This document shows, piece by piece, positions 838-23,087 of a stretch of 64,000 nt of DNA. A program made the translations under genes and the position numbers. Origin of the DNA: Pseudofrankia saprophytica (GTDB lineage: Bacteria; Actinomycetota; Actinomycetes; Frankiales; Frankiaceae). The stretch lies in contig NZ_KI912266.1 of NCBI RefSeq assembly GCF_000235425.2, positions 2,060,188 through 2,124,187 of the forward strand, given 5' to 3'. Positions within the stretch are counted from its first letter, which is position 1. Every line of letters starts with the position of its first letter. The notes below the pieces were generated by a model. It was not told where the DNA came from, did not search any database, and saw only the letters and a program-made list of their open reading frames with translations.

Positions 838-2581
<1,744 letters not shown>

Positions 2582-2624
2582 CCGTGATTGGAAGACGAAC
2601 CTGACCTCCCGAAGTTGGCATACC

Positions 2625-4850
2625 TCACTTTGGAGGCCAGAGGCCGGGCGGCGGCCATGCTCCCAGGTATCCAGGAGGTCGCGGCGGCAGCGGTTGACGA
2701 GGCTGGAGCTGCGTATGGATATCGAGCGTCGCAGTCGCAACCGTTCGGTTCTTATCCTCGACCGACGCGGTCAGTGTACGTCTTCCGGTTGAACCAACCC
2801 GGATACCTGGCGCGGGAATATTGACGGCAACTTCCGGCGAATCCGTATTGGTCCTGCCAGTAACATCGTTCCCCAGCCTCCAGATGACAGAAAGCCCACC
2901 GGGGACGTCGCAGAGAGGCATATGTAGCGAGTAGGTCACCCTGACCATCCCAGGTCCGCCGAGGAAGAACGGGATGAAGGTAGGGCCGTCAATGCTGATT
3001 GAGGGTACTGGTGCAGCCAAGCCGTGCGTTCCTCGCAGAGTGAGGCCGGAGCCACCAACCTCGCTATTAGAGTAGTTGAGGACCAATTTGAGTCCGTTAA
3101 ACAGTAGCGAGCGCGGCAGGCGGTCGGCGAACACTGCTCCGAGGCCACTCCCACTTACGTCACCGTCGCCACCGCCACCGCCACCATGGGATGTGTAAGC
3201 AGAGATAACGTTGGTCGCAATTTCAATGCCCCCAGGCACAAAGAACACGGCACCCAGGAAGGCCGCCCCAGCCCAATCTTCGCCGTTCCAATCGCGCGAG
3301 TTACTTTCCTCGATCCGTATTCTGGTTGACATCGTTCCGGCGCAGTCGCGGCTCATCCTGGTTTCGGCACCAAACTGATCGCGAATGTGATCTGTAAACC
3401 GAACCCCATAGGTGGCGCCGAATACGGGGATCAGATACACCCCTGATACATGAGTTACAACAGCCTGATGGGCAGCATCCAACTCGACATCGATTCCAGT
3501 GAGCGACACATCCCCGTCAGGATTCGGAACACCATTGGTGTCAAGTCGCTTCGGAAATCCCTCAAATACTTGCTGTGCTCCTTTTTTCAAGAATGCGAGT
3601 GAAGCGAAAAAGCCGAATGTCTCGGCGCCGGCGATGATTTTGCCATCTCCGGATGTTCGTGTCATCCACGCCCGGATTGAGTCGTCGCTCGGTGGTGCTA
3701 TCCACGCAGCAACAAGAGTCTGACCCTGCCCGACCAGGCTCTCCACCCGTAGAGGTAGCCCGGGGAATAGGTCGGAAACCAAACGACCGACAAAGGATAC
3801 AAGACCCTGAACAACCTCATCGGGGAGTTCGAAACCGGCCTGTATAGCAAGGTCCGCGACGGCGCCGTCCGGGATGCCATCGGGGTCTCCGGGGAACGAC
3901 TCTGGCATCACCCTGCCCAGAGCAACTGCAATGGCCTCGGGCCAGACTCGTCCGTTAGTCAGCCAATCGGCGATCTCCTGCGGGGAAGGGGCGCGGCCAG
4001 CATAAGCGCGTACCGCCAGTTGTGCCGCCTGTGCGCCCGCGTCCGGAGAACGCAGAAGTCGTGCGACTAGTTCGGCGCGCTGGGCGGGCTCAGCGGCCGC
4101 GGTTAGGGCGTTTGCGCTCTCCTCGGAGGTTGGCGACCGTCCCAGTAGATCTGTATAAAACGCGTTTACAACACCGGCTGGCCGAGCATAGCCTCTCCGG
4201 TCGAAGTACTCGTCGGAGGTTGCAAGCTGTGCGGTTAGAGCCGCTGTCCCTGCCGCCGCTACGATCTCAATGCCCTGCTCCAATTCAGCCTGATCGGGCA
4301 CCTTAGCGAGTAGCCGTCCGTAGACATCGCGAACAATGCGTTCTCTGAAATATTTGGTCGCCACGATCGAGTTGAGGACGGCGTCGTTCGTCTCGCCCGC
4401 AATCTCATCGAGCTCTCGGTTCCGGGCTGGCCGGCCGACAAGTCGCCGGAAGGCGCGGCAGGCAAACCTAAGACGGGAGGAACCGACGAGCGCGCTTGCG
4501 GTCGCAACGTACGTGGTGAGATCGTTGTTGCTAAGCCGGATGGTGACAACGAAGTCACCCGGTTCATCGAAGTGGTGGCTGCCGACCACCACGAAGCTTC
4601 TTACCCCAGTGGAGACAACCTTAGCCTCAGTGTCGGTGGTTCCGTCGCCCCAGTTGGCCACCGCCGAGAAAGTGGTTGCATCGCCTGCGACTTGAGCTAT
4701 GACAACATTTTCTGCACGTCTGCTGTCTTCAACAAGAATAACATTTCCAGTTACCTGCAATCCTGACATACGCCTGCCCTTCGCACCGTTTACGGCAGGG
4801 ATCGTCGGATCGTCCCGATGTAGACCGTCAGTTACATCCTGCGGCTCCAT
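2625..4850 (-). CDS. large PKD/DUF4214-like protein of unknown function
   Basis: A 741-residue protein whose codon use is visibly less GC-rich than its neighbours, suggesting recent transfer. A PKD/Ig-like stretch lies at about residues 57-118 (ANWGDGTTDTEAK, HHFDEPGDFVVTIRL). Residues about 120-330 carry repeats resembling DUF4214 (ATSDEYFDRRG followed by AFYTDLLGRSPTSEES), a domain found in secreted or surface proteins. A hydrophobic stretch (GAAFLGAVFFVPGGIEIAT) precedes a poly-glycine linker near residue 560. The C-terminal 150 residues look beta-rich (a second PKD-like segment) and end in a proline-rich tail. No signal peptide is evident at the N-terminus. The start at 4850 has GGAGGA about 12 bases upstream; an internal ATG at 4769 (MSGLQVTGN) is an alternative. 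No catalytic motif is recognised. It stands alone between two IS elements. Confidence 0.
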   Translation of the reverse strand: MEPQDVTDGLHRDDPTIPAVNGAKGRRMSGLQVTGNVILVEDSRRAENVVIAQVAGDATTFSAVANWGDGTTDTEAKVVSTGVRSFVVVGSHHFDEPGDFVVTIRLSNNDLTTYVATASALVGSSRLRFACRAFRRLVGRPARNRELDEIAGETNDAVLNSIVATKYFRERIVRDVYGRLLAKVPDQAELEQGIEIVAAAGTAALTAQLATSDEYFDRRGYARPAGVVNAFYTDLLGRSPTSEESANALTAAAEPAQRAELVARLLRSPDAGAQAAQLAVRAYAGRAPSPQEIADWLTNGRVWPEAIAVALGRVMPESFPGDPDGIPDGAVADLAIQAGFELPDEVVQGLVSFVGRLVSDLFPGLPLRVESLVGQGQTLVAAWIAPPSDDSIRAWMTRTSGDGKIIAGAETFGFFASLAFLKKGAQQVFEGFPKRLDTNGVPNPDGDVSLTGIDVELDAAHQAVVTHVSGVYLIPVFGATYGVRFTDHIRDQFGAETRMSRDCAGTMSTRIRIEESNSRDWNGEDWAGAAFLGAVFFVPGGIEIATNVISAYTSHGGGGGGDGDVSGSGLGAVFADRLPRSLLFNGLKLVLNYSNSEVGGSGLTLRGTHGLAAPVPSISIDGPTFIPFFLGGPGMVRVTYSLHMPLCDVPGGLSVIWRLGNDVTGRTNTDSPEVAVNIPAPGIRVGSTGRRTLTASVEDKNRTVATATLDIHTQLQPRQPLPPRPPGYLGAWPPPGLWPPK

Positions 4851-5006: not shown

Positions 5007-5936
5007 GAGGATGTCTGAGAAGGGTCACAGCGGCGCGCCGGTGAGCCGGTGGAGCAGGATCATGCTCATCGCGAGATAAATGGCGTTCTCGGCGGTGGCG
5101 GTCAGGTACTCGTAGTCCTTGGACAGGCGGCGGTACTTCCCCAGCCAGGCGAACGTCCGCTCAATCACCCACCGGCACGGCACCACCGCGAACGCCGGCA
5201 CCTGTCGCGGAGGTGCCCCGACCGGGGCCCAGGTATGGCGGAATCCGCCGTCGCGGCGGGAGACGATCTGGACGTCGACGCCGACCGCGTCTTCGGCCCA
5301 GTCGCAGAACTGCTGGCCGCGGTAGCCCTGATCAGCCCACACACGCCGTAGCCGGGTGAAGAGGTCCCGGGCCCGGGACAGGACCACCATCGCCGCCTCG
5401 CGGTCGTCCACGTTGGCCGGGCTGACGCAGGCCACCAGCACGGTCCCGCCAGTGTCGACGAGCAGATGGCGCTTGATACCAGGGACTTTCTTGCCGCCGT
5501 CGTAGCCGTGCAGCCCGCCCCGGTCAGTGGCGCGCACGCTCTGACTGTCCACGACGCCCGCCCCGGGGGTCGGGTCCCGGCCGCCACCGACCCGGTCGCG
5601 TTCCCGCAGCCGGGCCAGGATCTGCTCCCAGCGGCCCTCGATCCGCCAGCACCGCCAGTAGTGGTAGACCGTCTGCCACGGCGGCAGGTCATGCGGCAAC
5701 AACCGCCAGGCACACCCCGCCCGTATCCAATAGGCCAACCCGTTCACGATCTCCCGGCGCTCATGCGCCGGCGGCCGACCCCCGGGCTTGGGACCGGAAA
5801 TCAGCGGAGCGATCAACTCCCATTCGGCATCGGAGAGGTCGGTCGGATACCGCCGTCGCTCGACCATCGCCAGCCTCCTGTACCGAGGCTCCGGACACCG
5901 TCGAGCTACCCACTCTGACCCTTCTCAGACCTCCTC
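5007..5936 (-). mobile_element. IS5-family insertion sequence (930 bp)
   Basis: The ends are GAGGATGTCTGAGAAGGGTC at 5007 and, reverse complemented from 5936, GAGGAGGTCTGAGAAGGGTC, a near-perfect inverted repeat. Both flanks show TA, consistent with the 2-bp TA duplication of the IS427-like subgroup. One intact transposase gene fills the element. The sequence just right of it looks like the 3' end of an interrupted small membrane-protein gene. Confidence 0.
5025..5867 (-). CDS. IS5-family transposase, intact
   Basis: 280 residues with the layout of IS5/IS427-type DDE transposases. The N-terminal DUF4096-like region reads YPTDLSDAEWELIAPLI and AWRLLPHDLPPWQTVYHYW. The catalytic part follows: first Asp in GAGVVDSQSVRATDR, second Asp in RRVWADQGYRG, and Glu in WVIERTFAWLGKYRRLSKDY. 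The open reading frame is uninterrupted and the ends of the element are preserved, so this copy may be active. It is the only intact IS5 transposase in the window; the IS5-type copy at 25.1-27.3 kb is broken. Confidence 0.
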   Translation of the reverse strand: MVERRRYPTDLSDAEWELIAPLISGPKPGGRPPAHERREIVNGLAYWIRAGCAWRLLPHDLPPWQTVYHYWRCWRIEGRWEQILARLRERDRVGGGRDPTPGAGVVDSQSVRATDRGGLHGYDGGKKVPGIKRHLLVDTGGTVLVACVSPANVDDREAAMVVLSRARDLFTRLRRVWADQGYRGQQFCDWAEDAVGVDVQIVSRRDGGFRHTWAPVGAPPRQVPAFAVVPCRWVIERTFAWLGKYRRLSKDYEYLTATAENAIYLAMSMILLHRLTGAPL

Positions 5937-6512: not shown

Positions 6513-8387
6513 TCACGAACGTTCGTTACCGGACACGTTGGCTCTCGCCTGCCCCCGCCAGTAGGCGAGGTTGTTCCGGGTGGTCAGGGTGTTCGGGTGG
6601 TCGGGGCCAAGGACCCGCAGCCGGTCGGTGAGGAGCTGTTCGAAGGCGGTGGCCGCCCCGGCCGCATCCCCCGCCTCCCCTTGCCAGTAGGCCAGGTTGT
6701 GCCGGGCGGTCAGGGTGTTCGGGTGGTCGGGGCCGAAGACCCGCAGGTGGTCGGTGAGCAGCTGTTCGAAGGCGGTGGCCGCCCCGGCCGCATCCCCCGC
6801 CTCCCCTTGCCAGTAGGCGAGGTTGTGCCGGGTGGTCAGGGTGTCCGGGTGGTCGGGGCCGAAACGGTGGTGGGCGGTGTCGGCGAGGTGGTGGTAGCGG
6901 TCGATGGCGGCGGTGGCCAAGCCGGCGTTGCCCAGGCTGCTGGCGGCGCGGAACAGAACCCGGTGGGTGTCGGGCTGCCAGAGCGGGTCGGGGGCAGTGG
7001 TGTGCAGGGTGTCGGTGTTGGTACGCAGGGTCTGGGCGAGGGTGGTGTCGCGTTCGACCTCGGGCCAGACGGCCATCAGTGCGTCGGCCGCGGCCCGGCC
7101 CGCGGCGTGCTGCCCGTCGGGCGGCAAGGTTTCGCGGACGGCACGTTGCAGCAGCTGATGGATCCGCACGGTCTGGGCTGGGCTGGTGGGGTTGTGGTCA
7201 ATCAGGCTGAGTCGGTGCAGGACCCGCAGCGCGTCGCGGGCATCGTTCGCGCTGACTGGGGACAGACGCGAGCGTCGCCAACGTCGGCGACGCTTTTCGG
7301 GAACCGGCCGGCGGCTGGCCAGGTATCTCAGCGCTGGTGGGCTGGTGAGGACGATTTCGGGGATGCCGTTGGGGTCGAGCAGGGCGGCGGACTCGAGCAG
7401 GGGCCGGGCCAGGCCGACAGGGCGTTGCTGGTGGGCGCGGTCGATCGACAACGACCAGACGGCCGCGACCGGCGCCGGTTGGTCATCGGGCAGAGCGCTG
7501 GGGGCTAGGTCGGTCAGGGTTCGGCTGCGGTCGGCCAACCGGGCCCGGTAGGTCGGGGCGTCGAGGTCCAGATCGAGCAGGTAGGCGGCAGCCTGGGCTA
7601 GGGCGAGCGGCAGATGGCCCAGGTCGGCGGACAAGGCGGCGAGCTGGTCGACTGGCTCGGCGCGGCCGTGGGCGGCGAGCGTGGCGGCCAGATAGGCCAC
7701 CGCCTCGGCCTCGGTGAAAATACCGACGTCGACCCGGCGACGGCCGGGGCCGAACAGGGCCGCGTCCCGGCGACGGGTGGTGACCACAACACGACCGCCC
7801 GGCCGGTCGGGCGGCCACAGGCCGGCGAGGTCGGCGGGGTCTGCGAGATCGTCGAGCACGACCAGCCACCGCTTCTCCGTTTCGGCCAGCCAGGCAAGCA
7901 GCCTTTCGGCGGCGGCCGCCGGGTCGCCCTGATCGGCGCCGGCCACGTCGACAGCGGTGATGGTGTAGCCGGTCTGGATCTGCTCCCGGCTGCCCGCGGT
8001 TATCCAGACCAGTAGATCCACCTGCCGGCTGTCCCACATCTGGTGGGCGTAGTGGGCGGCGAGCTGGGTCTTCCCGACCCCACCCATCCCGGCCAGGACC
8101 TGGCACACCACCGCCGTCTCGCCGGCAGTGACCGCAGTCGCCAGCTGGTCGACTGGTGCCCGATGCTGGAAGCAGTCCGCCTGTCGCGGCACGACCCCGA
8201 CCCGGTGTGGCCAAGTCACCTGCGACGAACCCATGAGGAACGTGTTGTTCTGTACACCGGAGCCGACCAGCAGGGCGGTCGGGCCGGTAAAGGAGCTCCC
8301 ACTGACCGATGCCGCAGGTGTGTCCTCCGCCGGTACGTGGGCCGGCTTCTCGTCGTCAGGGTTCTCGGACGACGAGGCGGCGGCCAT
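6513..8387 (-). CDS. bacterial NLR: RHIM-like amyloid motif, NB-ARC NTPase, TPR
   Basis: A 624-residue STAND NTPase. After an acidic, disordered N-terminus, residues about 28-51 hold an amyloid-like motif (FTGPTALLVGSGVQNNTF) matching the C-terminus of the preceding gene product. The NB-ARC domain follows: Walker A GMGGVGKT at 100-107, Walker B WLVVLDD at 174-180, and the GxP-like LGHLPLALAQAAAYLL. A winged-helix/ARC region comes next, then three TPR units of the HPxTLTTRxNLA type (42-residue period) at about 515-624. Family members usually carry many more repeats, so the C-terminus (RANVSGNERS) may be truncated. The start is two bases after the upstream stop, so the two genes form an operon. 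Known for the family: ligand-driven oligomerisation that seeds amyloid templating of an effector in anti-phage cell death. The ligand here is unknown. Confidence 0.
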   Translation of the reverse strand: MAAASSSENPDDEKPAHVPAEDTPAASVSGSSFTGPTALLVGSGVQNNTFLMGSSQVTWPHRVGVVPRQADCFQHRAPVDQLATAVTAGETAVVCQVLAGMGGVGKTQLAAHYAHQMWDSRQVDLLVWITAGSREQIQTGYTITAVDVAGADQGDPAAAAERLLAWLAETEKRWLVVLDDLADPADLAGLWPPDRPGGRVVVTTRRRDAALFGPGRRRVDVGIFTEAEAVAYLAATLAAHGRAEPVDQLAALSADLGHLPLALAQAAAYLLDLDLDAPTYRARLADRSRTLTDLAPSALPDDQPAPVAAVWSLSIDRAHQQRPVGLARPLLESAALLDPNGIPEIVLTSPPALRYLASRRPVPEKRRRRWRRSRLSPVSANDARDALRVLHRLSLIDHNPTSPAQTVRIHQLLQRAVRETLPPDGQHAAGRAAADALMAVWPEVERDTTLAQTLRTNTDTLHTTAPDPLWQPDTHRVLFRAASSLGNAGLATAAIDRYHHLADTAHHRFGPDHPDTLTTRHNLAYWQGEAGDAAGAATAFEQLLTDHLRVFGPDHPNTLTARHNLAYWQGEAGDAAGAATAFEQLLTDRLRVLGPDHPNTLTTRNNLAYWRGQARANVSGNERS

Positions 8388-8389
8388 GC

Positions 8390-8809
8390 TCAGCCACCGA
8401 AGGTGTTCGTCTGCTGATTGTGGTCACCGACCTGCATCGCGGTCGGCCCGAAGAACGTGGTCCCCGAGACCGTCGCCCCGCCTGCCCGGGCAGCGGCGGC
8501 CTGCAGGTCGCGCACCGCCTGATCCAGCGCGGCGGCGAACCCGGGATCCCGCTCGGCGGCATCCTCGACGGCCCGCGCCACGCGCTGCTGGGTCCGCTCC
8601 GACAACTCCACGGCGCCAGCTTGGGCTTCCTCCTGCAGCCTTCCCAGCGCCGGATCCTCACCCAGCGCCCGGCTGACCAGCTCATGCACCCGGTCCATCC
8701 CAGCGTCCACCGCCCGGTCTACCTCGGCATCCGCCTGGGCGCCGACCCGGCGCGCCTTACGGACCGCCCAGGCGAACAGCACCCCGACCGCGACCTCGAT
8801 TCCCGTCAT
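8390..8809 (-). CDS. helical effector with C-terminal RHIM-like amyloid motif
   Basis: A 139-residue protein. I choose ATG 8809 (MTGIEVAVGVLFAWAV) because it has a GGGG ribosome binding site and matches the usual start of this actinobacterial family as I recall it; the frame stays open to 9022, with a further hydrophobic helix. The first 20 residues are hydrophobic and likely membrane-seeking. Residues about 20-105 are charged amphipathic helices (AEVDRAVDAGMDRVHELVSR). The last 25 residues contain FGPTAMQVGDHNQQTNTF, whose QVGDHN core closely resembles the mammalian RHIM tetrad region (VQVGDNN in RIPK3). Adjacent to an NLR with a matching N-terminal motif, it is probably a membrane-perforating (Bell-like) cell-death effector; that function is inferred from the architecture and gene pairing. 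Confidence 0.
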   Translation of the reverse strand: MTGIEVAVGVLFAWAVRKARRVGAQADAEVDRAVDAGMDRVHELVSRALGEDPALGRLQEEAQAGAVELSERTQQRVARAVEDAAERDPGFAAALDQAVRDLQAAAARAGGATVSGTTFFGPTAMQVGDHNQQTNTFGG

Positions 8810-8984
8810 CCCCAACCCCCCGCGACGCGTCCTTGTCGACCATGACCGTACGCGCCCAACCCACCACCTGATCACCAGACCGGCCGCCCCGGCAACCACC
8901 GCCAATTGGACCAGCCACGCCGGATCTGGCCAAGGGGGCGAGGAACTGCCGGACCGACACAGTAGGAACAGCCACGGTGCCCCG

Positions 8985-9115
8985 CCGACGGTCGTCGAGT
9001 CCCTCCGGCGGGACACCGTCACAACCGGCTGCCCTTCGTATCGGCGTCGACCTGGTGGTCGGGTTCTGGTCCGCCATCGAGACTCGCGCGTAGCCGATCA
9101 GCTTGCCGTCGGCAG
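8985..9115 (-). pseudogene. serine resolvase N-terminal remnant
   Basis: The minus strand reads KLIGYARVSMADQNP, the nucleophile-serine start of a Pin/resolvase recombinase. A frameshift follows: DHQVDAD appears in one frame and AAGCD in another, where family members read NPDLQVDALRAAGCD. Nothing of the rest of the catalytic domain remains. It lies in the 438-bp gap between the amyloid pair and the TIR-STAND gene, indicating past recombination here. Confidence 0.
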
Positions 9116-9247: not shown

Positions 9248-12200
9248 CTATTGAGCGCTGGCCGGACAGGTGTTCCGGTACGGCTCGGTGGCGAGGTAGC
9301 GAGTCCATTCCTGTTTGTCCAGGCCCCGGCCGGCGCGTTGGCAGGCGACCTGGACTGCGGCGTTCCGCAGGTACTGGAGCACCCCGATATCCCACATGCG
9401 CACCGTGCCGTCGTCTCCGCCGGCGGCAAGCAGGCCGTCAGGGGCAACCGCCACTGAGTTGACCGAGGTGCGCGAGTTTGTGACGCTGGCGATCGGGTCA
9501 CCAAGTGGACGGGGCGCTCCCCGGTCACTGACGTCCCACAAGCGCACCGTGCCATCGTTTGCGCCGACGGCAAGTATGCCGTCCGGACCGAACGCCAGCG
9601 AGTAGACCGAGGCGGTGGCGCCGGTGAGTGGATCGCCGAGTGGGCGGGGCGCCTCCCGGTTGCTGATGTCCCAGAGGCGCACCGCGCCGTCGGATCCGCC
9701 GAAGGCGAGCAGGCCGTTCGGGCTGAACGCCACCGCGTTGAGCTGGTTGATCATGTAGGTGTAGCTGGGGGGCGTGGAGCTGAGCAGGTGGGGCGCGGCC
9801 CGGCCGCTGACGTCCCACAACCGGACCATGCCGAGGTCGCCTGTCGCAAGAAGGCCGTTCGGGCCGAATGCCAACGAGTGCGCCTCGCTGGAGTCGGTGG
9901 GGGCTGAGGTGCCGAGCAGGTGGGGCGCGCCCCGACTGCTGACGTCCCACAACTTCACCCCACCGTCGCCGCCTGTCGCAAGAAGGCCGTTCGGGCCGAA
10001 TGCCAATGAGCGCACCTGGCTGGAGTCGGTGGGGGCTGAGGTGCCGAGCAGGTGGGGCGCGCCCCGACTGCTGACGTCCCACAACTTCACCCCACCGTCG
10101 CCGCCTGTTGCAAGAAGGCCGTTCGGGCCGAATGCCAATGAGCGCACCTGGCTGGAGTCGGTGGGGGCTGAGGTGCCGAGCAGGTGGGGCGCGCCCCGAC
10201 TGCTGACGTCCCACAACTTCACCCCACCGTCGCCGCCTGTTGCAAGAAGGCCGTTCGGGCCCAACGCCAGCGCGTTTGGCTGCTCGGTGTCGCTGACGGG
10301 TGTGGCCCCTAGTGGACGAGGTGCTGCCCAGCCACTGATGTCCCACAGGCGGACTGTGCCATCGGAACCGCCAGAGGCAAGGAGCCCGTCCGGGCCGAAC
10401 ACCACTGAGTAGACCGGGCCGGTGTGACCTGTGAGTGGGCCGCCGAGTGCACGAGGCGTGGTCCGGTCGCTGATGTCCCACAGGCGGACTGTGCCATCGG
10501 AACCGCCAGAGGCAAGGAGCCCGTCCGGGCCGAACACGACTGAGTTGACCGAGCCGGTCCCGTTGGAGGCCCCGAGTGGGCGAGGCGTGGCCCGACCACT
10601 GATATCCCACAACCGCACTCCGCTGCCGTCGCCTGTAGCGAGTAGCCCGTCCGGGCCGGACACCGCTGAGTTGACCGAGCCGAGGCTGCGTGAGGGCGTC
10701 ACACTGAGTCGCTGCGGTGCGCCTGGGTCATTGATATCCCACAGGCGCACCTCGCCGTTCTGAGTTACAGAGGTGAGGAGGCCGTCCGGGCCGAACACTA
10801 CTGAGGCTAGGGAGCTGCCGGCGCTGATGTCGTTCGAGGGCCTGGAACCCGGTCGCCGTGGTGTGCCTGGGTCATTGACATCCCACAGGCGAACCGCGCC
10901 GTCTTGACTACCGACGGCGAGAATTCCATCTGGGCTGAACATCACTGAGTTGACCGAGCTGACCGTAGCCGTGTCGCTGGCGATGGTGGTGCGTAGGTGG
11001 GGGGTGGCGGCAAGGGTCTGGAGGAGATTGCTGCGGGCACGCGCTTGCTGGTTTTTGGGGGCGATGGTGTCAGCGGCGACGGCCAGGCGCAGCGACAGTG
11101 CCGGGTCCGTGGTGCGGGCGTTGTCGGCGAGGGTGAGGAGTTGGTCGGCTACCGCGGTGCGCCGCCCGTCTTCGGCGGTCTTGGCCTGGAGGTATGCGGT
11201 GATCCCGAGGCTGCTGGCGGCCAGGAGTAGGGCGATCAGGATGGTGATGGCGGTGGTGATGCGCCGGCGGGCGTGGCGGCGGCTGGTGGTCAGGAACTGC
11301 CGGGTTGTGGGGGTGAGCTCGTCGGGGATCAGGAGGTCGAGGGTGGAGTCGGCTCTGCTGTATCCCCACAGCTGGCCGGCTGGGCGGCCCGCCAGTTGCC
11401 AGTCGGTGGCGGCGGTTTCGGCCTGGGCGCGTTGGCGTAGCCGCTCGGCGTTGGTGGCGATCGCCTTGTTGAGCGATGGCCATGCGGTCAGCAGTCGTTC
11501 GTGGGCGACTTCCACCGTGACGGGTCCGTCGGGGGTGGCGTCGAGGACGAGCAGCCGTCGGCTGACGAACGGGAGCAGCTGGGCCCGGGTGAGGTCGGGC
11601 AGCTGGTCGAGCGGGATGCGTCGGCGGATGGGTCGGTTGTCGGTGTCGACGGTGACCAGTGCCAGCAGTCCTGCCAGGACGTCCTGCTGGCTGCGGCCGG
11701 TGGTCGTGGTGGCGTCGGTGAGGGCGGCGTCGGCTTGTTCGATGAGTGCCTGTTGGACGCCGCCGATCTGCTCGTACAGCCCGGCGGAGAGCACGTGGGT
11801 GGCGGCGGCCTGGGCGGTGAGGTGCAGGCGTTGGAGGGTGTAGGCGAGCAGGGGCAGGGCGTGGCCGTCGCCGGTGTCGGTGACCATGCGGGCGACGAGC
11901 TCGTCGTCGATGTGCAGCCCGGACATCCGCGCCGGTTCGGCGATCACCAGCGGGAGCAGGTCGCGCGAGAGCGGTAGGACCGGTTCTACCGCCACCGACA
12001 GCCCGGTGGGTGCGGCGGCTTCGAGGAGTGGGTCGAGGTATTCGGAGCGCAGCGTCGCCACGACCCGCACCCGAGCCTGGATCGTCACGGCCAGCAGGGC
12101 CAGGAACCGGTCACGGTCGGCGGGGCTGGTGCGTACGAGCAGTTCCTCGGCCTGGTCGATGACCAGCAGTAGCCACCGGGCCGGGTTGGCCGCGGCCAGC

Positions 12201-13102
12201 AACTCGCCGATGACCTGGCCGATAGCGTCCGGGTCAGCCAGCCGGCGGGTCAACGTTTCGGCGTCCCAGTCCAGGCCATGGCGCCGGCCGGCATCGGCGA
12301 GCACCACCGCCAGCGCCGCCGCTGGCTGGTCGCTAGGGGTCATCGGCAGCAGGGTCAGCCAGTCGGCCTCGCCGGCCAGCCTCGGGGTGAGGCCAGCGGC
12401 GACGAGCGAGGATTTCCCACAGCCTGACGGGCCGACCACTGCCATCAACCCGCCCGCGTCGGCGTGGGCGATCATCCGGTCCGCCAGGTGGCGGGTCTCC
12501 GGTTCCCGGCCGCGGAAGGCCCCGGCCCGGTTCGCGTCGAAGGCCGCCAGGCCCGGGAACGGCGAGAGCCTCGGCTCTCCGTCGCTGGTCTCGTGCAGGC
12601 CGGGATAGTCGGGTGCGGCGCTGGCGGGGAACGGCGGCGGGGTCGTCGGCTTCTGTCGGGCGGACGTAGCCACACCGAGCAGACGCTCGCGGGCGGCGTC
12701 GTCGCCGAGGCCGAAAAGGTCCACCCCGACCAGCGGGCGCAGCAGGCCCGGTCTCGGGCAGTCCTCGACCCGCGTCACCACCAGTCGACGTTGCGCTCCG
12801 GTCGGGTCGTCGGCCCAGATGGCCTGCCACTGCGCGGTCTCCATCGCCGAGACCAGATACGCCGACGACAGCACCGCGATCATCCGCGCCGACGTCGACA
12901 GCGCCCGCTGCGTCTCGGTGACGACGTTCGACCCGCCGGTGAAGTCCCAGGCCCGCACCAGCACCCGGTAGCCGGCGGCCTCTAATTGCCAGCCGATCCA
13001 CTCCGCCCACGCCAGGTCCGGCATCGCGTACGAGACGAAGAAATCGACAGCGGCATCGGTCCGGACAGCATCCGGCCGGTCTCCCCCCGTGACCATGCTC
13101 AT
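9248..13102 (-). CDS. TIR-STAND-WD40 receptor protein
   Basis: A 1284-residue protein. Residues about 18-145 form a TIR domain (DFFVSYAMPDLAWAEWIGW, then RRLVVTRVEDC). From about 180 there is an nSTAND1-type NTPase: PFPGLAAFDANRAGAFRGRE lead-in, Walker A GPSGCGKS at 224-231, Walker B WLLLVIDQAEELL. A predicted transmembrane helix is at about 612-635 (AITILIALLLAASSLGITA), then a helical segment rich in A-D-P, then about 12 WD40-type blades to residue about 1240 (GPDGLLASGGSDGTVRLWD). Three successive blades are almost identical at DNA level. The residue aligned with the catalytic TIR glutamate appears to be Gln91 (SAMETAQW), so NADase activity is doubtful. Stands divergent from the LGFP-lectin gene. 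Known for the family: NTP-dependent conflict or death switches. The start offers ATG 13102 or 13096, neither with a strong ribosome binding site. Confidence 0.
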   Translation of the reverse strand: MSMVTGGDRPDAVRTDAAVDFFVSYAMPDLAWAEWIGWQLEAAGYRVLVRAWDFTGGSNVVTETQRALSTSARMIAVLSSAYLVSAMETAQWQAIWADDPTGAQRRLVVTRVEDCPRPGLLRPLVGVDLFGLGDDAARERLLGVATSARQKPTTPPPFPASAAPDYPGLHETSDGEPRLSPFPGLAAFDANRAGAFRGREPETRHLADRMIAHADAGGLMAVVGPSGCGKSSLVAAGLTPRLAGEADWLTLLPMTPSDQPAAALAVVLADAGRRHGLDWDAETLTRRLADPDAIGQVIGELLAAANPARWLLLVIDQAEELLVRTSPADRDRFLALLAVTIQARVRVVATLRSEYLDPLLEAAAPTGLSVAVEPVLPLSRDLLPLVIAEPARMSGLHIDDELVARMVTDTGDGHALPLLAYTLQRLHLTAQAAATHVLSAGLYEQIGGVQQALIEQADAALTDATTTTGRSQQDVLAGLLALVTVDTDNRPIRRRIPLDQLPDLTRAQLLPFVSRRLLVLDATPDGPVTVEVAHERLLTAWPSLNKAIATNAERLRQRAQAETAATDWQLAGRPAGQLWGYSRADSTLDLLIPDELTPTTRQFLTTSRRHARRRITTAITILIALLLAASSLGITAYLQAKTAEDGRRTAVADQLLTLADNARTTDPALSLRLAVAADTIAPKNQQARARSNLLQTLAATPHLRTTIASDTATVSSVNSVMFSPDGILAVGSQDGAVRLWDVNDPGTPRRPGSRPSNDISAGSSLASVVFGPDGLLTSVTQNGEVRLWDINDPGAPQRLSVTPSRSLGSVNSAVSGPDGLLATGDGSGVRLWDISGRATPRPLGASNGTGSVNSVVFGPDGLLASGGSDGTVRLWDISDRTTPRALGGPLTGHTGPVYSVVFGPDGLLASGGSDGTVRLWDISGWAAPRPLGATPVSDTEQPNALALGPNGLLATGGDGGVKLWDVSSRGAPHLLGTSAPTDSSQVRSLAFGPNGLLATGGDGGVKLWDVSSRGAPHLLGTSAPTDSSQVRSLAFGPNGLLATGGDGGVKLWDVSSRGAPHLLGTSAPTDSSEAHSLAFGPNGLLATGDLGMVRLWDVSGRAAPHLLSSTPPSYTYMINQLNAVAFSPNGLLAFGGSDGAVRLWDISNREAPRPLGDPLTGATASVYSLAFGPDGILAVGANDGTVRLWDVSDRGAPRPLGDPIASVTNSRTSVNSVAVAPDGLLAAGGDDGTVRMWDIGVLQYLRNAAVQVACQRAGRGLDKQEWTRYLATEPYRNTCPASAQ
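9852..10261 (-). repeat. three near-identical 132-bp tandem units encoding WD40 blades
   Basis: The segment GAGTCGGTGGGGGCTGAGGT recurs at 9891, 10023 and 10155, exactly 132 bp apart, with only a few base differences between units. Each unit encodes one 44-residue blade (LGTSAPTDSS ... GGDGGVKLWD). The other blades of the same gene are much more diverged. This implies recent duplication or gene conversion inside the propeller. Confidence 0.
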
Positions 13103-17718: not shown

Positions 17719-20277
17719 GTGCGTGGCTTGTCGGATGCGGAGGTTCGGGCATTCGCGGCCGCCTTCCCGGATGCGGCTTCGGCGCGCCCGGTGCTGAGGG
17801 CCGCGGGCCTGCCCGCGGGCCGAGATCCGTCGTGGGCTGCACGGGACGCCGAAGGTTTCTGGTTCGCGGTCGCGGAGCTGCTGGAGCACGGCGGGCTGCC
17901 AGGCGGCCGGACGGCGTTGTTCGCCGCGGCGCTGACCTGGTATCCGGACAACCCAGTACTCACGACAGGCGCGGCGGGTGGCGGCGTCGTGTGGGATGTC
18001 GGCTGGCCGCGCAATCCGCTGTTCACCGGCCGGGAGGACGAACTCTCGGCGCTGCGAGACCGGTTGGTCGGGTCGGGGTCGGCGGCCGTGCTGCCGGTAG
18101 CAGTCCACGGGCTGGGTGGCGTCGGTAAGACACAGCTGGCAGTGGAGTACTGCTACCGATTTCGCCGAGACTACGAGTTGGTGTGGTGGGTAGCGGCGCA
18201 GGACTCCGCCGCCGCGCTCGCCGGGCTCGCGCGGTTGGCGGAGCGCGTCGGAGTCGCGGTGCCGGGGGCAGCCGAGGAATCGGTGCGAGCGGTGATGGTG
18301 CTGCTGGCGTCAGGAAGCCGGTTTGGTCGCTGGCTACTGGTGCTGGACAACGCAGGCGTCCCGGCAGACCCCTTCGGAGTACTGAAGGCGGCGGAGGCCT
18401 CGGGCGGACATGTTTTGGTGACCTCAAGGGATCACCGCTGGTCGACGCTGGCCCGCCCGGTACAGGTCGATGTGCTGCCCTCGATGGACGCGATGACCTT
18501 GCTGCGCTGCCACGTTGGACAGGTCGCCGACCGAGACGCTGGCCGGATCGTGGCGGCATTGGGAAACCTGCCGCTGGCGGTCGAGCAGGCGGGAGCGTTC
18601 CTCGCGACCACCGCGATGACACCGACCGACTACGCGGGCCTCCTGTCCACACAGCTACGAGGTCTGATGAGCCGCGGCGCGCCGGCCGGGGTGACGCCGG
18701 TAGCGGCGACCTGGACAGTGACCCTCCACCAACTCGACGACCCGGCCGTGGTGATGTTGGCCCGTTTGTGGGCGCACTTCGGCCCAGAACCGATACCACT
18801 GGATCTGTTACGCACAGACGTCGCCGGGGTGCTACCCGCGCCGCTGGATCAGGCCGCGACAGACCGGATCGCGCTGGCGGAGACCGTCGGCCGACTGCTC
18901 ACGCTGGCACTGGTGCGTCGTACCGAGGACGCAGACGCGGTGGTGATGCACCGGCTGATACAGGACGTGCTTCGCGACGACACTCCCGCCGAGCTGCGTC
19001 CTGTGCTGCGAACAGCGGTCTGTCGGCTGCTCGCCCAGGGCCACCCTCCGGTGCGAGACACCCCGGATGCCTGGCCCCGCTACGCCCAGATCCACGCACA
19101 CGCTCTCGCCGCTGGACTCGTCGACGACGATGACCCTGACAGCCAGAACATGATCGCCTGGCTGGTCTGGTACCTACGAGCACGCGGCGACTACCCCAAC
19201 AGTCGACGCCTCGCGGACCAGGCACACCAACGCAGTCGAGAGATCCTCGATGCTGATCACCCCAGCACGCTCACTGCCGCGCAGCAACTCGCCGGCGTCG
19301 TAAGAGCGCAGGGCGACTACCCGACCGCGCGGGCGTTGCTCGACGACGTCCTCGCCCGATGCCGCCGCGTCCTGGGCGAGAACCACCCGTCCACGATCAA
19401 CGCCGCACATGAACTCGCAGTCGTCATGCGCGCGCAGGGCGACTACTCCACCGCGCGGGCGACGTTCGACGAGGTCCTCAGCCAATACCGACACATCCTC
19501 GGTGAGGACCATCCCTCCACCTTGACGGCCGCAGCCAACCTCGCGGGCGTCATACGGGCGCAGGGTGACAACTCGACCGCGCGGGCGTTGCTCGACGACG
19601 TCCTCGCCCGGCGCCGTCGCATCCTCGGCGAGGACCATCCCTCCACAATCAACGCGGCGCACAACCTCGCGGCCGTTGTACGGGCGCAGGGCGACGACCT
19701 GACCGCGCGGGCGTTGCTCGACGATGCCCTTGTCCGGCGCCGCCGTGTCCTCGGCGAGGACCACCTGGACACCCTCGCCGCCGCGCACAATCTCGCCGGG
19801 GTCGTACGAGCGCAGGGTGACCTCCCGGCTGCCCGGGCGATGCTCGACGATGTCCTTGTCCGGCGCCGCCGTGTCCTCGGCGAGGATCACCCAGACACCC
19901 TCGCCGCCGCGCACAGTCTCGCGGCCGTTGTACGGGCGCAGGGCGACGACCTGACCGCGCGGGCGTTGCTCGACGATGTCCTTGTCCGGCGCCGCCGTGT
20001 TCTCGGCGAGGATCACCCAGACACCCTCGCCGCCGCGCACAATCTCGCGGGGGTCGTACAGGCACAGGGCGACCTCCCGACCGCCCGGGCAATGCTCGAG
20101 GACGTTCTTGTCCGGCGCTGCCGTGTCCTCGGCGAGGACCACCCCTTCACCCACGCCGTACGTCAGGCATTGGCCGCCATGACCAACAACGAGGCGCAGT
20201 ACTGCGAGTACTCGGACCAACCCCCAGACCCTGGTCGGCCAAGACACGCTCCACCACAGGTGCGCCACTCGTCGTAG
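17719..20277 (+). CDS. EAD-STAND-TPR signalling NTPase
   Basis: 852 residues from a GTG start. Residues about 3-83 form an effector-associated (death-like) domain: FAAAFPDAASARPVLRAAGL, AGLPAGRDPSW, EGFWFAVAELLEHGGLPGG, YPDNPVL. A STAND/NB-ARC NTPase follows: FTGREDELSALRDRL, Walker A GLGGVGKT at 131-138, Walker B WLLVLD at 205-210, LGNLPLAVEQAG at 281-292. From about 478 there are eight or more 42-residue TPRs (ENHPSTINAAHELAVVMRAQ). The same EAD is found as the second domain of the membrane NHL protein at 23088. EADs work by like-with-like contacts in the Aravind-lab description of these systems, so the two proteins probably meet. Effector identity is unknown; the protein has no enzymatic domain of its own. 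Confidence 0.
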   Translation: MRGLSDAEVRAFAAAFPDAASARPVLRAAGLPAGRDPSWAARDAEGFWFAVAELLEHGGLPGGRTALFAAALTWYPDNPVLTTGAAGGGVVWDVGWPRNPLFTGREDELSALRDRLVGSGSAAVLPVAVHGLGGVGKTQLAVEYCYRFRRDYELVWWVAAQDSAAALAGLARLAERVGVAVPGAAEESVRAVMVLLASGSRFGRWLLVLDNAGVPADPFGVLKAAEASGGHVLVTSRDHRWSTLARPVQVDVLPSMDAMTLLRCHVGQVADRDAGRIVAALGNLPLAVEQAGAFLATTAMTPTDYAGLLSTQLRGLMSRGAPAGVTPVAATWTVTLHQLDDPAVVMLARLWAHFGPEPIPLDLLRTDVAGVLPAPLDQAATDRIALAETVGRLLTLALVRRTEDADAVVMHRLIQDVLRDDTPAELRPVLRTAVCRLLAQGHPPVRDTPDAWPRYAQIHAHALAAGLVDDDDPDSQNMIAWLVWYLRARGDYPNSRRLADQAHQRSREILDADHPSTLTAAQQLAGVVRAQGDYPTARALLDDVLARCRRVLGENHPSTINAAHELAVVMRAQGDYSTARATFDEVLSQYRHILGEDHPSTLTAAANLAGVIRAQGDNSTARALLDDVLARRRRILGEDHPSTINAAHNLAAVVRAQGDDLTARALLDDALVRRRRVLGEDHLDTLAAAHNLAGVVRAQGDLPAARAMLDDVLVRRRRVLGEDHPDTLAAAHSLAAVVRAQGDDLTARALLDDVLVRRRRVLGEDHPDTLAAAHNLAGVVQAQGDLPTARAMLEDVLVRRCRVLGEDHPFTHAVRQALAAMTNNEAQYCEYSDQPPDPGRPRHAPPQVRHSS
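19250..20165 (+). repeat. tandem 126-bp units encoding TPRs
   Basis: Seven consecutive 126-bp units, the last four almost identical (for example GACGATGTCCTTGTCCGGCG recurring every 126 or 252 bp). Each encodes one TPR ending RVLGEDHPDTLAAAH. The degree of identity rises toward the C-terminus, a sign of recent expansion or conversion. Confidence 0.
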
Positions 20278-20580
20278 CGGGGCCGTTTCAGGATCGACTC
20301 GGTCGCACCTTCGACGATTACGCAACGTCAAAAATGGTCACAATATATCGTCGGCGGCGCGATCGTCCGATGACGCAGGCATTCGGATCACCCTACTCGG
20401 CGATGGACCGTTAATTGACGAGACGGAGCTGGTCAGAGCACGGCCGTGGCTCAGGTCCAGCTCCTTCCCGTGATAACCGCGAGAAGTCCATAAATGTGAA
20501 CCTGCGTCCGCGAAGGTCAACAGATCGCTTCGGCTGGCTTTCCCGTGACAACGCGTCTTGTCATAGGAAAGGCGGCGGAC
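20278..20580. other. 303 bp, no gene seen
   Basis: Separates the STAND gene from the IS6 element. Relatively AT-rich patches (AATATATCG, TTAATTGACG) but no clear hairpin or open frame with a start signal. Confidence 0.
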
Positions 20581-21405
20581 GGCTCTGTTGCGTTGGCGGG
20601 GCACGGCGGTCGGGCCAGCCGCTCAGGCATGATCGACCGGTGCATCGTCGGCGTGTCCGTCCCGTGGTTCCGGCCTCCGAGTTCGCGGGGTTCCGGTTCC
20701 CGCCGGAAGCGATCACGTTGGCGGTGCGGTGGTATTTGCGCTTCGGCCTGTCCTACCGGGACGTCGAGGAGCTACTGGCCGAGCGCGGCATCGTGGTCGA
20801 TCACGTCAGCGTCTTCAGGTGGGTGCAGCGGTTCACTCCGCTGCTCGTCGACGCCGCCCGGCGGTGCCGCCACAGCCCGGGCGACAGGTGGTTCACCGAC
20901 GAAACCTACGTCAAGGTCGCCGGCCGTTGGACTTACTTCTACCGGGCGATCGACCAGTTCGGCCAGGTCATCGACGTCCTGGCCTCCGAAAGGCGAGACC
21001 TGGCGGCAGCGCGCCGCTTCTTCACCCGGGCGCTGGCCCACGGCCGCCGGCCGGTCGAGGTGACCACCGACCGCGCTGCGGCCTACCCGCGCGTCCTCGA
21101 CGAACAACTCCCCGCCGCCCACCACGTCGACGCCCGGTATGCGAACAACACGATCGAAGCCGATCACGGCCGGTTGAAGGCACGGCTGCGACCGATGCGA
21201 GGGCTCAAACAACTGCGCTCCGCCCAGGTGATCGGATCCGGGCACGCCTTCGTCCAGAACGTTCGCCGCGGGCACTACGAACTCGGCATCGACGCCGAGC
21301 CCCATCTCCGGCTCGCGGCAGCGTTCGCCGAGCTCGCTCTGGCCATCTGATCAGGCCACCAACCTGACCCTGCCGTGCCTCGGGCCTGCCCAACGCAACA
21401 GAGCC
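20581..21405 (+). mobile_element. IS6-family insertion sequence, copy 1 (825 bp, intact)
   Basis: Begins GGCTCTGTTGCGTTGGC and ends with its inverse GCCCAACGCAACAGAGCC at 21405. No 8-bp target duplication is visible, which is common for IS6 after recombination between copies. Two further full-length but broken copies occur at 36.75 and 56.56 kb, and end fragments at 40.53 and 45.09 kb. Confidence 0.
20640..21350 (+). CDS. IS6-family transposase, intact
   Basis: 236 residues from GTG 20640 (HRRRVRPVVPASEFAGF). Compact IS6/IS26 layout: N-terminal HTH (LRFGLSYRDVEELLAERGI, VSVFRWVQRFTPLL), then the DDE core with first Asp in RWFTDETYVKVAGRW, second Asp in VTTDRAAAYPRVLDEQL and Glu in NTIEADHGRLKARL. 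Of three full-length copies in the window only this one is uninterrupted, so it could supply transposase in trans to the others. Confidence 0.
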   Translation: MHRRRVRPVVPASEFAGFRFPPEAITLAVRWYLRFGLSYRDVEELLAERGIVVDHVSVFRWVQRFTPLLVDAARRCRHSPGDRWFTDETYVKVAGRWTYFYRAIDQFGQVIDVLASERRDLAAARRFFTRALAHGRRPVEVTTDRAAAYPRVLDEQLPAAHHVDARYANNTIEADHGRLKARLRPMRGLKQLRSAQVIGSGHAFVQNVRRGHYELGIDAEPHLRLAAAFAELALAI

Positions 21406-22554: not shown

Positions 22555-22990
22555 GCCGACTCTGTTTTGGCACGCGTCCGCCGCGGCTGCCATGGCCACG
22601 TCGGCCAGAGCGAGAGCGATCCACGGCGGCGTTCCCGCCCGGCGGCGTCGAGCATGACGCCGCCGGTCAGGGAGCCAACCCCGATGCCGAGGTCGGACGT
22701 CGGTGGTCCGTACCGACGTGGCGAGGTCTGCCTTCTGCGCACCGCGGGCGTTGACGACGGCCGCCCCCGCCGTCGGGGCCGCGCCAAGCGCCGTGCCCCC
22801 ACGCGGCGACCGAGACGAGGAGGACCGCGGGCTCGCGCCCGGACGGTCCCAGCACGGGCATCGCCCGCGTCACCCCGGCCACCGCGCCGGCTATCAGGCG
22901 GACGACGGCGCCCAAACGGGCAACTGCGCACATGTCCTCGGTTGGCGACCCTCCTCGGCACGGATTCGCTAATGTCACGACATACGGCGC
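22555..22990 (-). pseudogene. decayed MFS drug-efflux transporter, C-terminal part
   Basis: Minus-strand frames patch together the last helices of a Bcr-type major facilitator: RLGAVVRLIAGAVAGV and PAVLLVSVAAWG, then VVNARGAQKADLATSVRTTD, GIGVGSLTGGVMLDAAGRE and WIALALADVAMAAA. Each piece is in a different frame and no N-terminal half is present. It fills most of the gap upstream of the NHL gene. Confidence 0.
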
Positions 22991-23087
22991 GGCTCGGGGC
23001 GGTCACGGCCATTACTTTCTCCCGCGGGCCAGTTTCGGGACCGCCGACGTCCCCTGCCCATGGCGTCGGTACCAGGGGGGATGGCCA

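What the first reader, a model, noticed from the sequence alone, without database searches (positions are those of the whole stretch)
9852..10261. Near-identical WD40 blade duplications
Three 132-bp units are almost the same at DNA level whereas other blades are much diverged. As in fungal NLR and HET-E genes, such homogenised repeats mark sensors under rapid, concerted evolution of ligand specificity.
Basis: partly seen in the sequence, partly recalled or inferred. Interest (0 to 1): 0.55.

Follow-up and report, generated by a model that had tools for sequence, protein, structure and literature searches.

The report
Freshly copied blades in bacterial immune-like receptor
A soil actinobacterium carries an immune-receptor-like gene whose ligand-sensing wheel recently grew by copying one blade about twice; this kind of repeat growth is already known, but related genes show selection at the same four positions as fungal self/non-self receptors.

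Summary
In a 1284-aa TIR-nSTAND1-TM-WD40 gene (9248-13102, minus) a 132-nt blade is repeated 3.2 times at 9838-10261, with 5 differences in 292 compared bases. Blades 7 and 8 differ by one silent base. Identical protein with random codons would give about 78% identity, so this is recent DNA duplication.

No good copy of the unit was found elsewhere in the genome, unlike the between-gene exchange of Podospora HET-D/E. Homologues differ sharply: one is a deletion relic, one is split between two frames.

At family level, close blade pairs from 13 ORFs show dN/dS about 2 at the four codons reported for HET-D/E and about 0.3 elsewhere. The window gene alone cannot prove this: blades 8 and 9 differ at two of the four. 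A wider replication was underpowered. The TIR carries Gln where most relatives have the presumed catalytic Glu.

Locally repetitive WD40 propellers, and amplified ones in STAND proteins, are described (PMC9218822): a new member of a known kind. The codon-level selection in bacteria is the part worth following.

The parts
9248..13102 (-). TIR-nSTAND1-TM-WD40 receptor-like gene, 1284 aa, intact frame
12677..13042 (-). TIR_2 domain (aa 21-142); aa 91 is Gln where 36 of the 46 other aligned TIR rows have Glu
11381..12562 (-). nSTAND1 NTPase (aa 181-574); Walker A GPSGCGKS (aa 224-231), Walker B LLLVIDQAEEL (aa 311-321)
11195..11251 (-). hydrophobic, probably transmembrane segment (aa 618-636, mean hydropathy 2.24) preceded by RRHARRR
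9389..11017 (-). twelve WD40 blades (aa 696-1238)
9838..10261 (-). near-identical 132-nt array, 3.21 copies, 5 mismatches in 292 compared bases
10076..10207 (-). blade 7; one silent difference from blade 8
9944..10075 (-). blade 8
9812..9943 (-). blade 9; 90% identical to blade 8, changes at its codons 20-23 and 36-41
10335..10558 (-). second, more diverged duplication, blades 4/5, lag 135; tract of 89 compared bases with 3 mismatches
9251..9388 (-). C-terminal tail after blade 12; similar tails at 73-83% DNA identity lie elsewhere in the genome

Best explanation
The gene encodes an NLR-like sensor: an N-terminal TIR, an nSTAND1 NTPase switch, a probable membrane-spanning segment and a twelve-blade WD40 sensor. 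Shown: one blade was recently copied in tandem inside this gene (about 3.2 copies of 132 nt), besides a more diverged copying of another blade (4/5). Shown: no good copy of the unit was found elsewhere in the genome, and the homologues examined lack it; one of them is reduced to a relic and one has its blades in two frames. Inferred: unequal crossing-over or slippage between blades adds or removes 132-nt units in frame, keeping the fold while changing the size and face of the sensor. Copies then diverge under selection on four codons per blade that lie on the top face in the fungal model; this is supported across the family, not proven in this gene. Inferred from the family: ligand binding to the propeller drives NTP-dependent assembly of the STAND and activates the N-terminal domain. 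Here that domain may not be a normal NADase, because the presumed catalytic Glu is Gln.
For: Domains. Array and recency. Privacy of the unit. Blade-number variation (7 in 21 of 50 ORFs, 13-16 in 9 of 50, 12 here). Homologue turnover: deletion relic at 79-85% DNA identity, frame-split homologue. Selection: omega 1.90-2.25 at the four codons against 0.30-0.37 elsewhere; 2dlnL 8.2, 23.6 and 29.4 against omega 1. Exactly these four of 46 columns have omega above 1 with 2dlnL above 3.84 in the full set.
Against: In the window gene only 3 close blade pairs exist. Of 7 amino-acid changes between blades 8 and 9, two fall on the four codons (P 0.11), and four of the seven lie at the diverged edge of the array. 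The wider replication gave 3 pairs in 2 of 27 ORFs and was not significant. The presumed TIR Glu is replaced, so the effector may be dead. No ligand is known, and PADLOC gives only weak hits to a TIR stretch and a P-loop. The propeller arrangement could not be modelled (pTM 0.46).
Confidence: 0.66

Rival explanations
1. Neutral local amplification in a decaying gene: blades are copied and lost by replication or recombination error with no adaptive value, and this gene is on the way to becoming a relic like its counterpart in a sister species.
For: TIR Glu-to-Gln; relic and frame-split homologue; 12 blades, not a multiple of 7; too few amino-acid changes in this gene to show selection.
Against: The 1284-codon frame, Walker A and Walker B are intact. 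Family-wide omega is about 0.3 outside and about 2 at the four codons, which neutrality does not give.
Confidence: 0.2
2. Gene conversion between old blades, not new duplication, made blades 7-9 alike.
For: The copies keep an exact 132-nt register and the interior differences are clustered. Some other genes have near-identical non-adjacent blades, e.g. blades 2 and 6 of L086 and 3 and 11 of L089.
Against: The near-identical tract runs continuously through three adjacent units and ends once on each side, as expected from tandem duplication. No good donor was found elsewhere in the genome.
Confidence: 0.1
3. Assembly error: the true number of copies differs.
For: The CN3 genome is a 454/Illumina draft (PMC3622958, whole text read). 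PMC12222747 (passages) reports that such domains are not accurately reconstructed from Illumina-based assemblies.
Against: The copies are distinguishable (one silent difference, then clustered differences). The 424-base array is near one 454 Titanium read in length (read length recalled); an 8-kb paired-end library was made, and gaps and misassemblies were edited and resolved by PCR.
Confidence: 0.07

Closest known systems
Highly repetitive WD40 beta-propellers, locally repetitive class; WRAP of Nostoc punctiforme Npun_R6612 (PMC9218822, passages)
   Same: Near-identical WD40 blades in a STAND protein, recent amplification, relatives disrupted by frameshifts or stops, Actinobacteria named among groups with high incidence; the paper's class 'locally repetitive' (few alike blades beside divergent ones) fits.
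   Different: WRAP has 14 near-identical blades; here about 3 of 12. There the TIR sits on a neighbouring protein; here it is on the same chain.
Podospora anserina HET-D/HET-E receptors (PMC1805685 and PMC12222747, passages)
   Same: STAND-type NTPase plus WD40 sensor, near-identical repeats of variable number, four codons in two pairs flanking conserved sites under diversifying selection (same 2-16-2 spacing found here at family level).
   Different: HET instead of TIR, NACHT instead of nSTAND1; Podospora repeats are exchanged between family members, whereas no good copy of this unit was found in another gene.
Prokaryotic highly-repetitive WD40 proteins (PMC5587647, passages)
   Same: Reports highly repetitive blades that are conserved at most sites but diverse at predicted interaction hotspots.
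   Different: 'Positive selection' and 'STAND' occur 0 times in its main text; the passages seen hold no dN/dS test.
PkwA of Thermomonospora curvata, WD40 domain (PDB 5yzv)
   Same: Best sequence match among solved structures, E 1.1e-43.
   Different: Named as a Ser/Thr protein kinase, not TIR-STAND.

Membership tests
Bacterial TIR-STAND-WD40 (NLR-like) receptor | N-terminal TIR domain | tested here: met
   TIR_2, E 4e-27, aa 21-142
Bacterial TIR-STAND-WD40 (NLR-like) receptor | STAND NTPase with Walker A and B | tested here: met
   nSTAND1 E 1.6e-77; motifs at aa 224 and 311
Bacterial TIR-STAND-WD40 (NLR-like) receptor | C-terminal WD40 sensor | tested here: met
   12 blades
Bacterial TIR-STAND-WD40 (NLR-like) receptor | catalytic Glu of NADase TIRs, if the domain is to be a NADase (position inferred from alignment and recalled motif spacing; not a requirement of the architecture) | tested here: not met
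   Gln at aa 91; of the 46 other aligned rows 36 have Glu, 4 Gln
Bacterial TIR-STAND-WD40 (NLR-like) receptor | anti-phage or cell-death activity | not testable with these tools
   needs experiment; PADLOC gives only weak partial hits
Locally highly repetitive beta-propeller (PMC9218822) | consecutive blades of high identity (paper's cut-off 60%) beside divergent blades | tested here: met
   blades 7/8/9 at 84-100% protein identity, most other pairs 35-65%
HET-D/HET-E-type diversifying WD40 receptor | repeats exchanged between family members | tested here: not met
   best-scoring other place in own genome 74% over 98 bases; blades 7-9 at most 0.68 identical to blades of the other fetched own-genome ORFs
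HET-D/HET-E-type diversifying WD40 receptor | four codons per repeat under diversifying selection, family level | tested here: met
   58 pairs, 13 ORFs: omega 1.90, 2dlnL 29.4; columns 20, 22, 38, 40
HET-D/HET-E-type diversifying WD40 receptor | the same in the window gene alone | tested here: inconclusive
   3 pairs only. Blades 8/9: columns 20 and 22 changed, 38 and 40 without amino-acid change; P 0.11 for 2 of 4 among 7 changes, 0.018 for 2 of 3 interior changes, which are one cluster. Blades 4/5 also differ at columns 20 and 22
HET-D/HET-E-type diversifying WD40 receptor | repeat-number polymorphism within the species | not testable with these tools
   collections hold one genome per species

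The most novel reading that the evidence does not exclude
Frankiaceae keep a large set of WD40 receptor-like genes whose freshly duplicated blades are driven apart by diversifying selection at the very four codons used by Podospora HET-D/HET-E. Bacteria would thus run the same 'copy a blade, then edit four surface residues' recognition engine as fungi, with copying mostly confined within genes; the window gene is the most recent copying event seen here.
Probability: 0.45. Interest if true: 0.65.

Novelty: new member of a known kind. Interest (0 to 1): 0.42.

Why it matters
Highly repetitive WD40 domains in bacterial STAND proteins have been suspected of rapid recognition evolution. The codon-level result here points to the same four positions as in fungal allorecognition genes, so the suspicion can be tested: those four residues per blade predict the ligand face, and repeat number in same-species strains predicts specificity. 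The window gene offers a recent, three-copy starting point.

Tried and rejected
Exchange of blades between genes was sought and rejected for this unit. Across 274 blades of 42 fetched own-genome ORFs, 117 have their nearest neighbour in the same gene; the best cross-gene pairs listed are position-for-position blades of two neighbouring ORFs in L082.

Structure: AlphaFold2 of aa 660-1284 with a 4-row alignment gave pLDDT 65.9 and pTM 0.46. Foldseek's top 50 included tandem WD40 propellers (Gemin5) and Apaf-1 with low TM-scores. Whether 12 blades form one ring, 7+5 or another arrangement is left open.

A wider replication of the selection test used 27 loci from a class-wide search: 10 from the same family and 17 from other families. 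Only 2 of 27 ORFs had blade pairs of 80% or more (3 pairs), and one of the two (L130) is from G001, the same genus. Omega at the four codons was 2.2, 2dlnL 3.6, not significant. It neither refutes nor replicates, and these loci are short stretches.

Limits of the selection test: I had seen the per-column counts before I took the four codons from PMC1805685 and mapped them to columns, so the choice was not blind. Podospora codons 7, 9, 25 and 27 were mapped to columns 20, 22, 38 and 40 by the paper's text (pairs flanking conserved codons 8 and 26) and equal spacing; its figure was not seen. Top-face location is the paper's, not computed here. Pairs are minimum-spanning-tree edges within ORFs; the model is pairwise, MG94-type with F3x4. 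The fit uses fixed branch lengths and an omega grid and overstates 2dlnL (40.0 against 29.4 in the joint fit). Two of the 13 ORFs (L070) belong to one frame-split gene. In ungapped blades (65 of 400; 14 pairs, 4 genes) column 19 joins the four, and at the 85% cut (12 pairs) column 38 drops out.

Conserved gene order around the relic in G001 was sought and not found: in its 19-kb stretch only the gene itself matched the window; in the 18-kb stretch before it (L114) only window 52-59 kb matched, and the 18 kb after it (L115) gave none (E up to 1e-8).

Print check: searches listed no paper on codon-level selection in bacterial STAND WD40 blades; only titles and abstract starts were seen for most, lists were capped, and subscription papers are missing. 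Dunin-Horkawicz 2014 was seen only as cited in PMC9218822.

Full report
WHAT IS THERE. The window lies at C1:2060188-2124187 of a genome of 9,978,592 bp in 2 contigs. This equals the published size and scaffold number of Frankia sp. CN3 (PMC3622958, whole text read), now filed as Pseudofrankia, probably P. saprophytica (assignment recalled; the name exists). The gene 9248-13102 (minus) encodes 1284 aa: TIR_2 at aa 21-142, nSTAND1 at 181-574, intact Walker A and B, a strong hydrophobic segment at 618-636 preceded by RRHARRR, twelve WD40 blades at 696-1238 and a C-terminal tail.

THE REPEAT. At a lag of 132 bases the coding strand matches itself over 292 positions with 5 mismatches, i.e. 3.21 copies at window 9838-10261. 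Blades 7 and 8 differ by one silent base. The other four mismatches fall in codons 20-23 of blade 9 and change QVRS to EAHS. A second, more diverged duplication joins blades 4 and 5 (89%, lag 135). Re-encoding the same protein with the gene's own codons gives at most 90.2% identity in 5000 draws, so the likeness is of DNA, hence recent.

IS IT UNUSUAL? I took 40 stretches (33 of this genome, 7 of relatives) plus the window: 50 ORFs had blade hits and 46 had enough blades to compare. The window gene has the highest best-pair identity (0.992), followed by 0.978, 0.969, 0.957, 0.941, 0.926 and 0.911. It is the top of a continuum, not a thing apart. The stretches were chosen by similarity to this gene, so this is no census.

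PRIVATE, NOT SHARED. In its own genome the best-scoring match of the 401-base array outside the gene is 74% over 98 bases; a second is 67% over 209; the rest have E above 0.1. In the loci then held, the best-scoring match of the unit outside the gene is 75% over 101 bases, in a relic of the same gene in another species; a 52-base match at 79% lies in L079, own genome. This differs from Podospora, where repeats are exchanged between genes (PMC1805685, passages).

TURNOVER. In G001 (8.8 Mb, same genus; recalled as P. inefficax EuI1c) about 460 bases hold the upstream end and first codons (79% over 179 bases), one blade, and the C-tail (85% over 209 bases), with the N- and C-parts in different frames. 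A third homologue (L071, another genus) is cut by a contig end and says nothing about repeat number. No match to the window's unit at E up to 1e-5 was found in the last two. Blade counts by HMM are 7 in 21 of 50 ORFs and 13-16 in 9 of 50; the window gene has 12.

SELECTION. I aligned 400 blades from 50 ORFs to one 46-column model and took minimum-spanning-tree pairs within ORFs. From PMC1805685 I took codons 7, 9, 25 and 27, which flank conserved codons 8 and 26, and mapped them by spacing to columns 20, 22, 38 and 40, flanking V21 and D39; I had seen the counts by then. A pairwise codon model with codon-position base frequencies gave omega 2.24, 2.25 and 1.90 at the four codons and 0.37, 0.32 and 0.30 elsewhere, for identity cut-offs 0.90, 0.85 and 0.80 (14, 32 and 58 pairs; 7, 12 and 13 ORFs). 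Against omega = 1, 2dlnL is 8.2, 23.6 and 29.4. Column by column, exactly these four of 46 have omega above 1 with 2dlnL above 3.84. The 25 other sets of the same spacing do not. Own-genome pairs without the window gene (28) give 2.2 and relatives' pairs (27) give 1.7. In 100 of 100 gene bootstraps the best grid value is above 1 (branch lengths fixed). In ungapped blades (14 pairs, 4 genes) the four give omega 3 and column 19 joins them. The window gene contributes 3 pairs only: columns 20 and 22 change between blades 8/9 and between blades 4/5, columns 38 and 40 change no amino acid. The result is about its family. The class-wide replication was underpowered.

MECHANISM. Shown: recent tandem copying of one blade, in an intact receptor-like frame, with no good copy elsewhere; broken and reduced homologues; family-level diversifying selection on four codons that are top-face in the fungal model. 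Inferred: misaligned recombination between blades adds and drops in-frame units; copies diverge on the ligand face; ligand binding triggers NTP-dependent assembly as in other STAND proteins (PMC7159879, passages). Against a standard NADase output, aa 91 is Gln; of the 46 other aligned rows (61 hits before duplicates and short pieces were dropped) 36 have Glu and 4 Gln. That this column is the catalytic Glu follows from the recalled spacing in NADase TIRs.

KNOWN OR NEW. PMC9218822 (passages) describes locally repetitive propellers, recent amplification in a STAND protein, frameshifted relatives and high incidence in Actinobacteria. PMC5587647 (passages) notes diversity at hotspot sites in highly repetitive WD40 proteins. 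The finding is therefore a new member of a known kind. The codon-level match to HET-D/HET-E in bacteria was not seen in the searches named in Tried and rejected; it is the part that could matter.

Noticed in passing
8390-9022 (-) and 6513-8387 (-): A 210-aa protein ends in VSGTTFFGPTAMQVGDHNQQTNTFGG and the adjacent NB-ARC/TPR protein has VSGSSFTGPTALLVGSGVQNNTF near its start. This looks like an effector/NLR pair sharing a RHIM-like bacterial amyloid signalling motif (BASS3-type, by eye; a Frankia BASS3 peptide is mentioned in PMC8086366, passages).
   Followed up: partly
6513-6923 (-): The same NB-ARC protein carries two 126-nt TPR units 93% identical at DNA level, then stops inside a third, degenerate unit: a second recent repeat copying, possibly in a truncated gene.
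   Followed up: partly
17719-20277 (+): EAD1-NB-ARC-TPR protein with a 126-nt array of 7.2 copies (80% matches); NCBIfam names it FxSxx-COOH system TPR protein, 652.6 bits against cut-off 300.
   Followed up: no
22932-25112 (+): Protein with EAD1 (two stretches) and NHL/teneurin-type propeller repeats, with a 168-nt repeat at 24726-25042: another receptor-like gene with repeats in the same window.
   Followed up: no
12830-12832 (-), aa 91 of the gene: Gln replaces the Glu found in 36 of the 46 other aligned TIR rows; 4 others, including a gene of G001 (L016), also have Gln.
   Followed up: partly
G000 C1:7866918-7867106, C1:7990525-7990903, C2:1396480-1396815, C1:3271742-3272218, C1:2053339-2053695: Matches to the last blades and C-tail of this gene (49-75% aa identity). 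Two contain in-frame stops and may be remnants of dead relatives; the last two lie in open frames of 305 and 470 aa and may belong to other genes.
   Followed up: partly
5025-5867 (-), 20415-21350 (+): An IS4/5-family transposase and an IS240-type DDE transposase lie among the receptor-like genes.
   Followed up: no
L033:865-1506 and 2655-3317: Beside the Frankia nepalensis homologue lie 150-nt tandem arrays (85% and 81% matches), possibly RCC1-like repeats (recalled look, not tested).
   Followed up: no
2625-4850 (-): 741-aa protein with only a weak Pfam hit (PBS_linker_poly, below cut-off), in a stretch of lower GC (0.61 for 2001-4000).
   Followed up: no
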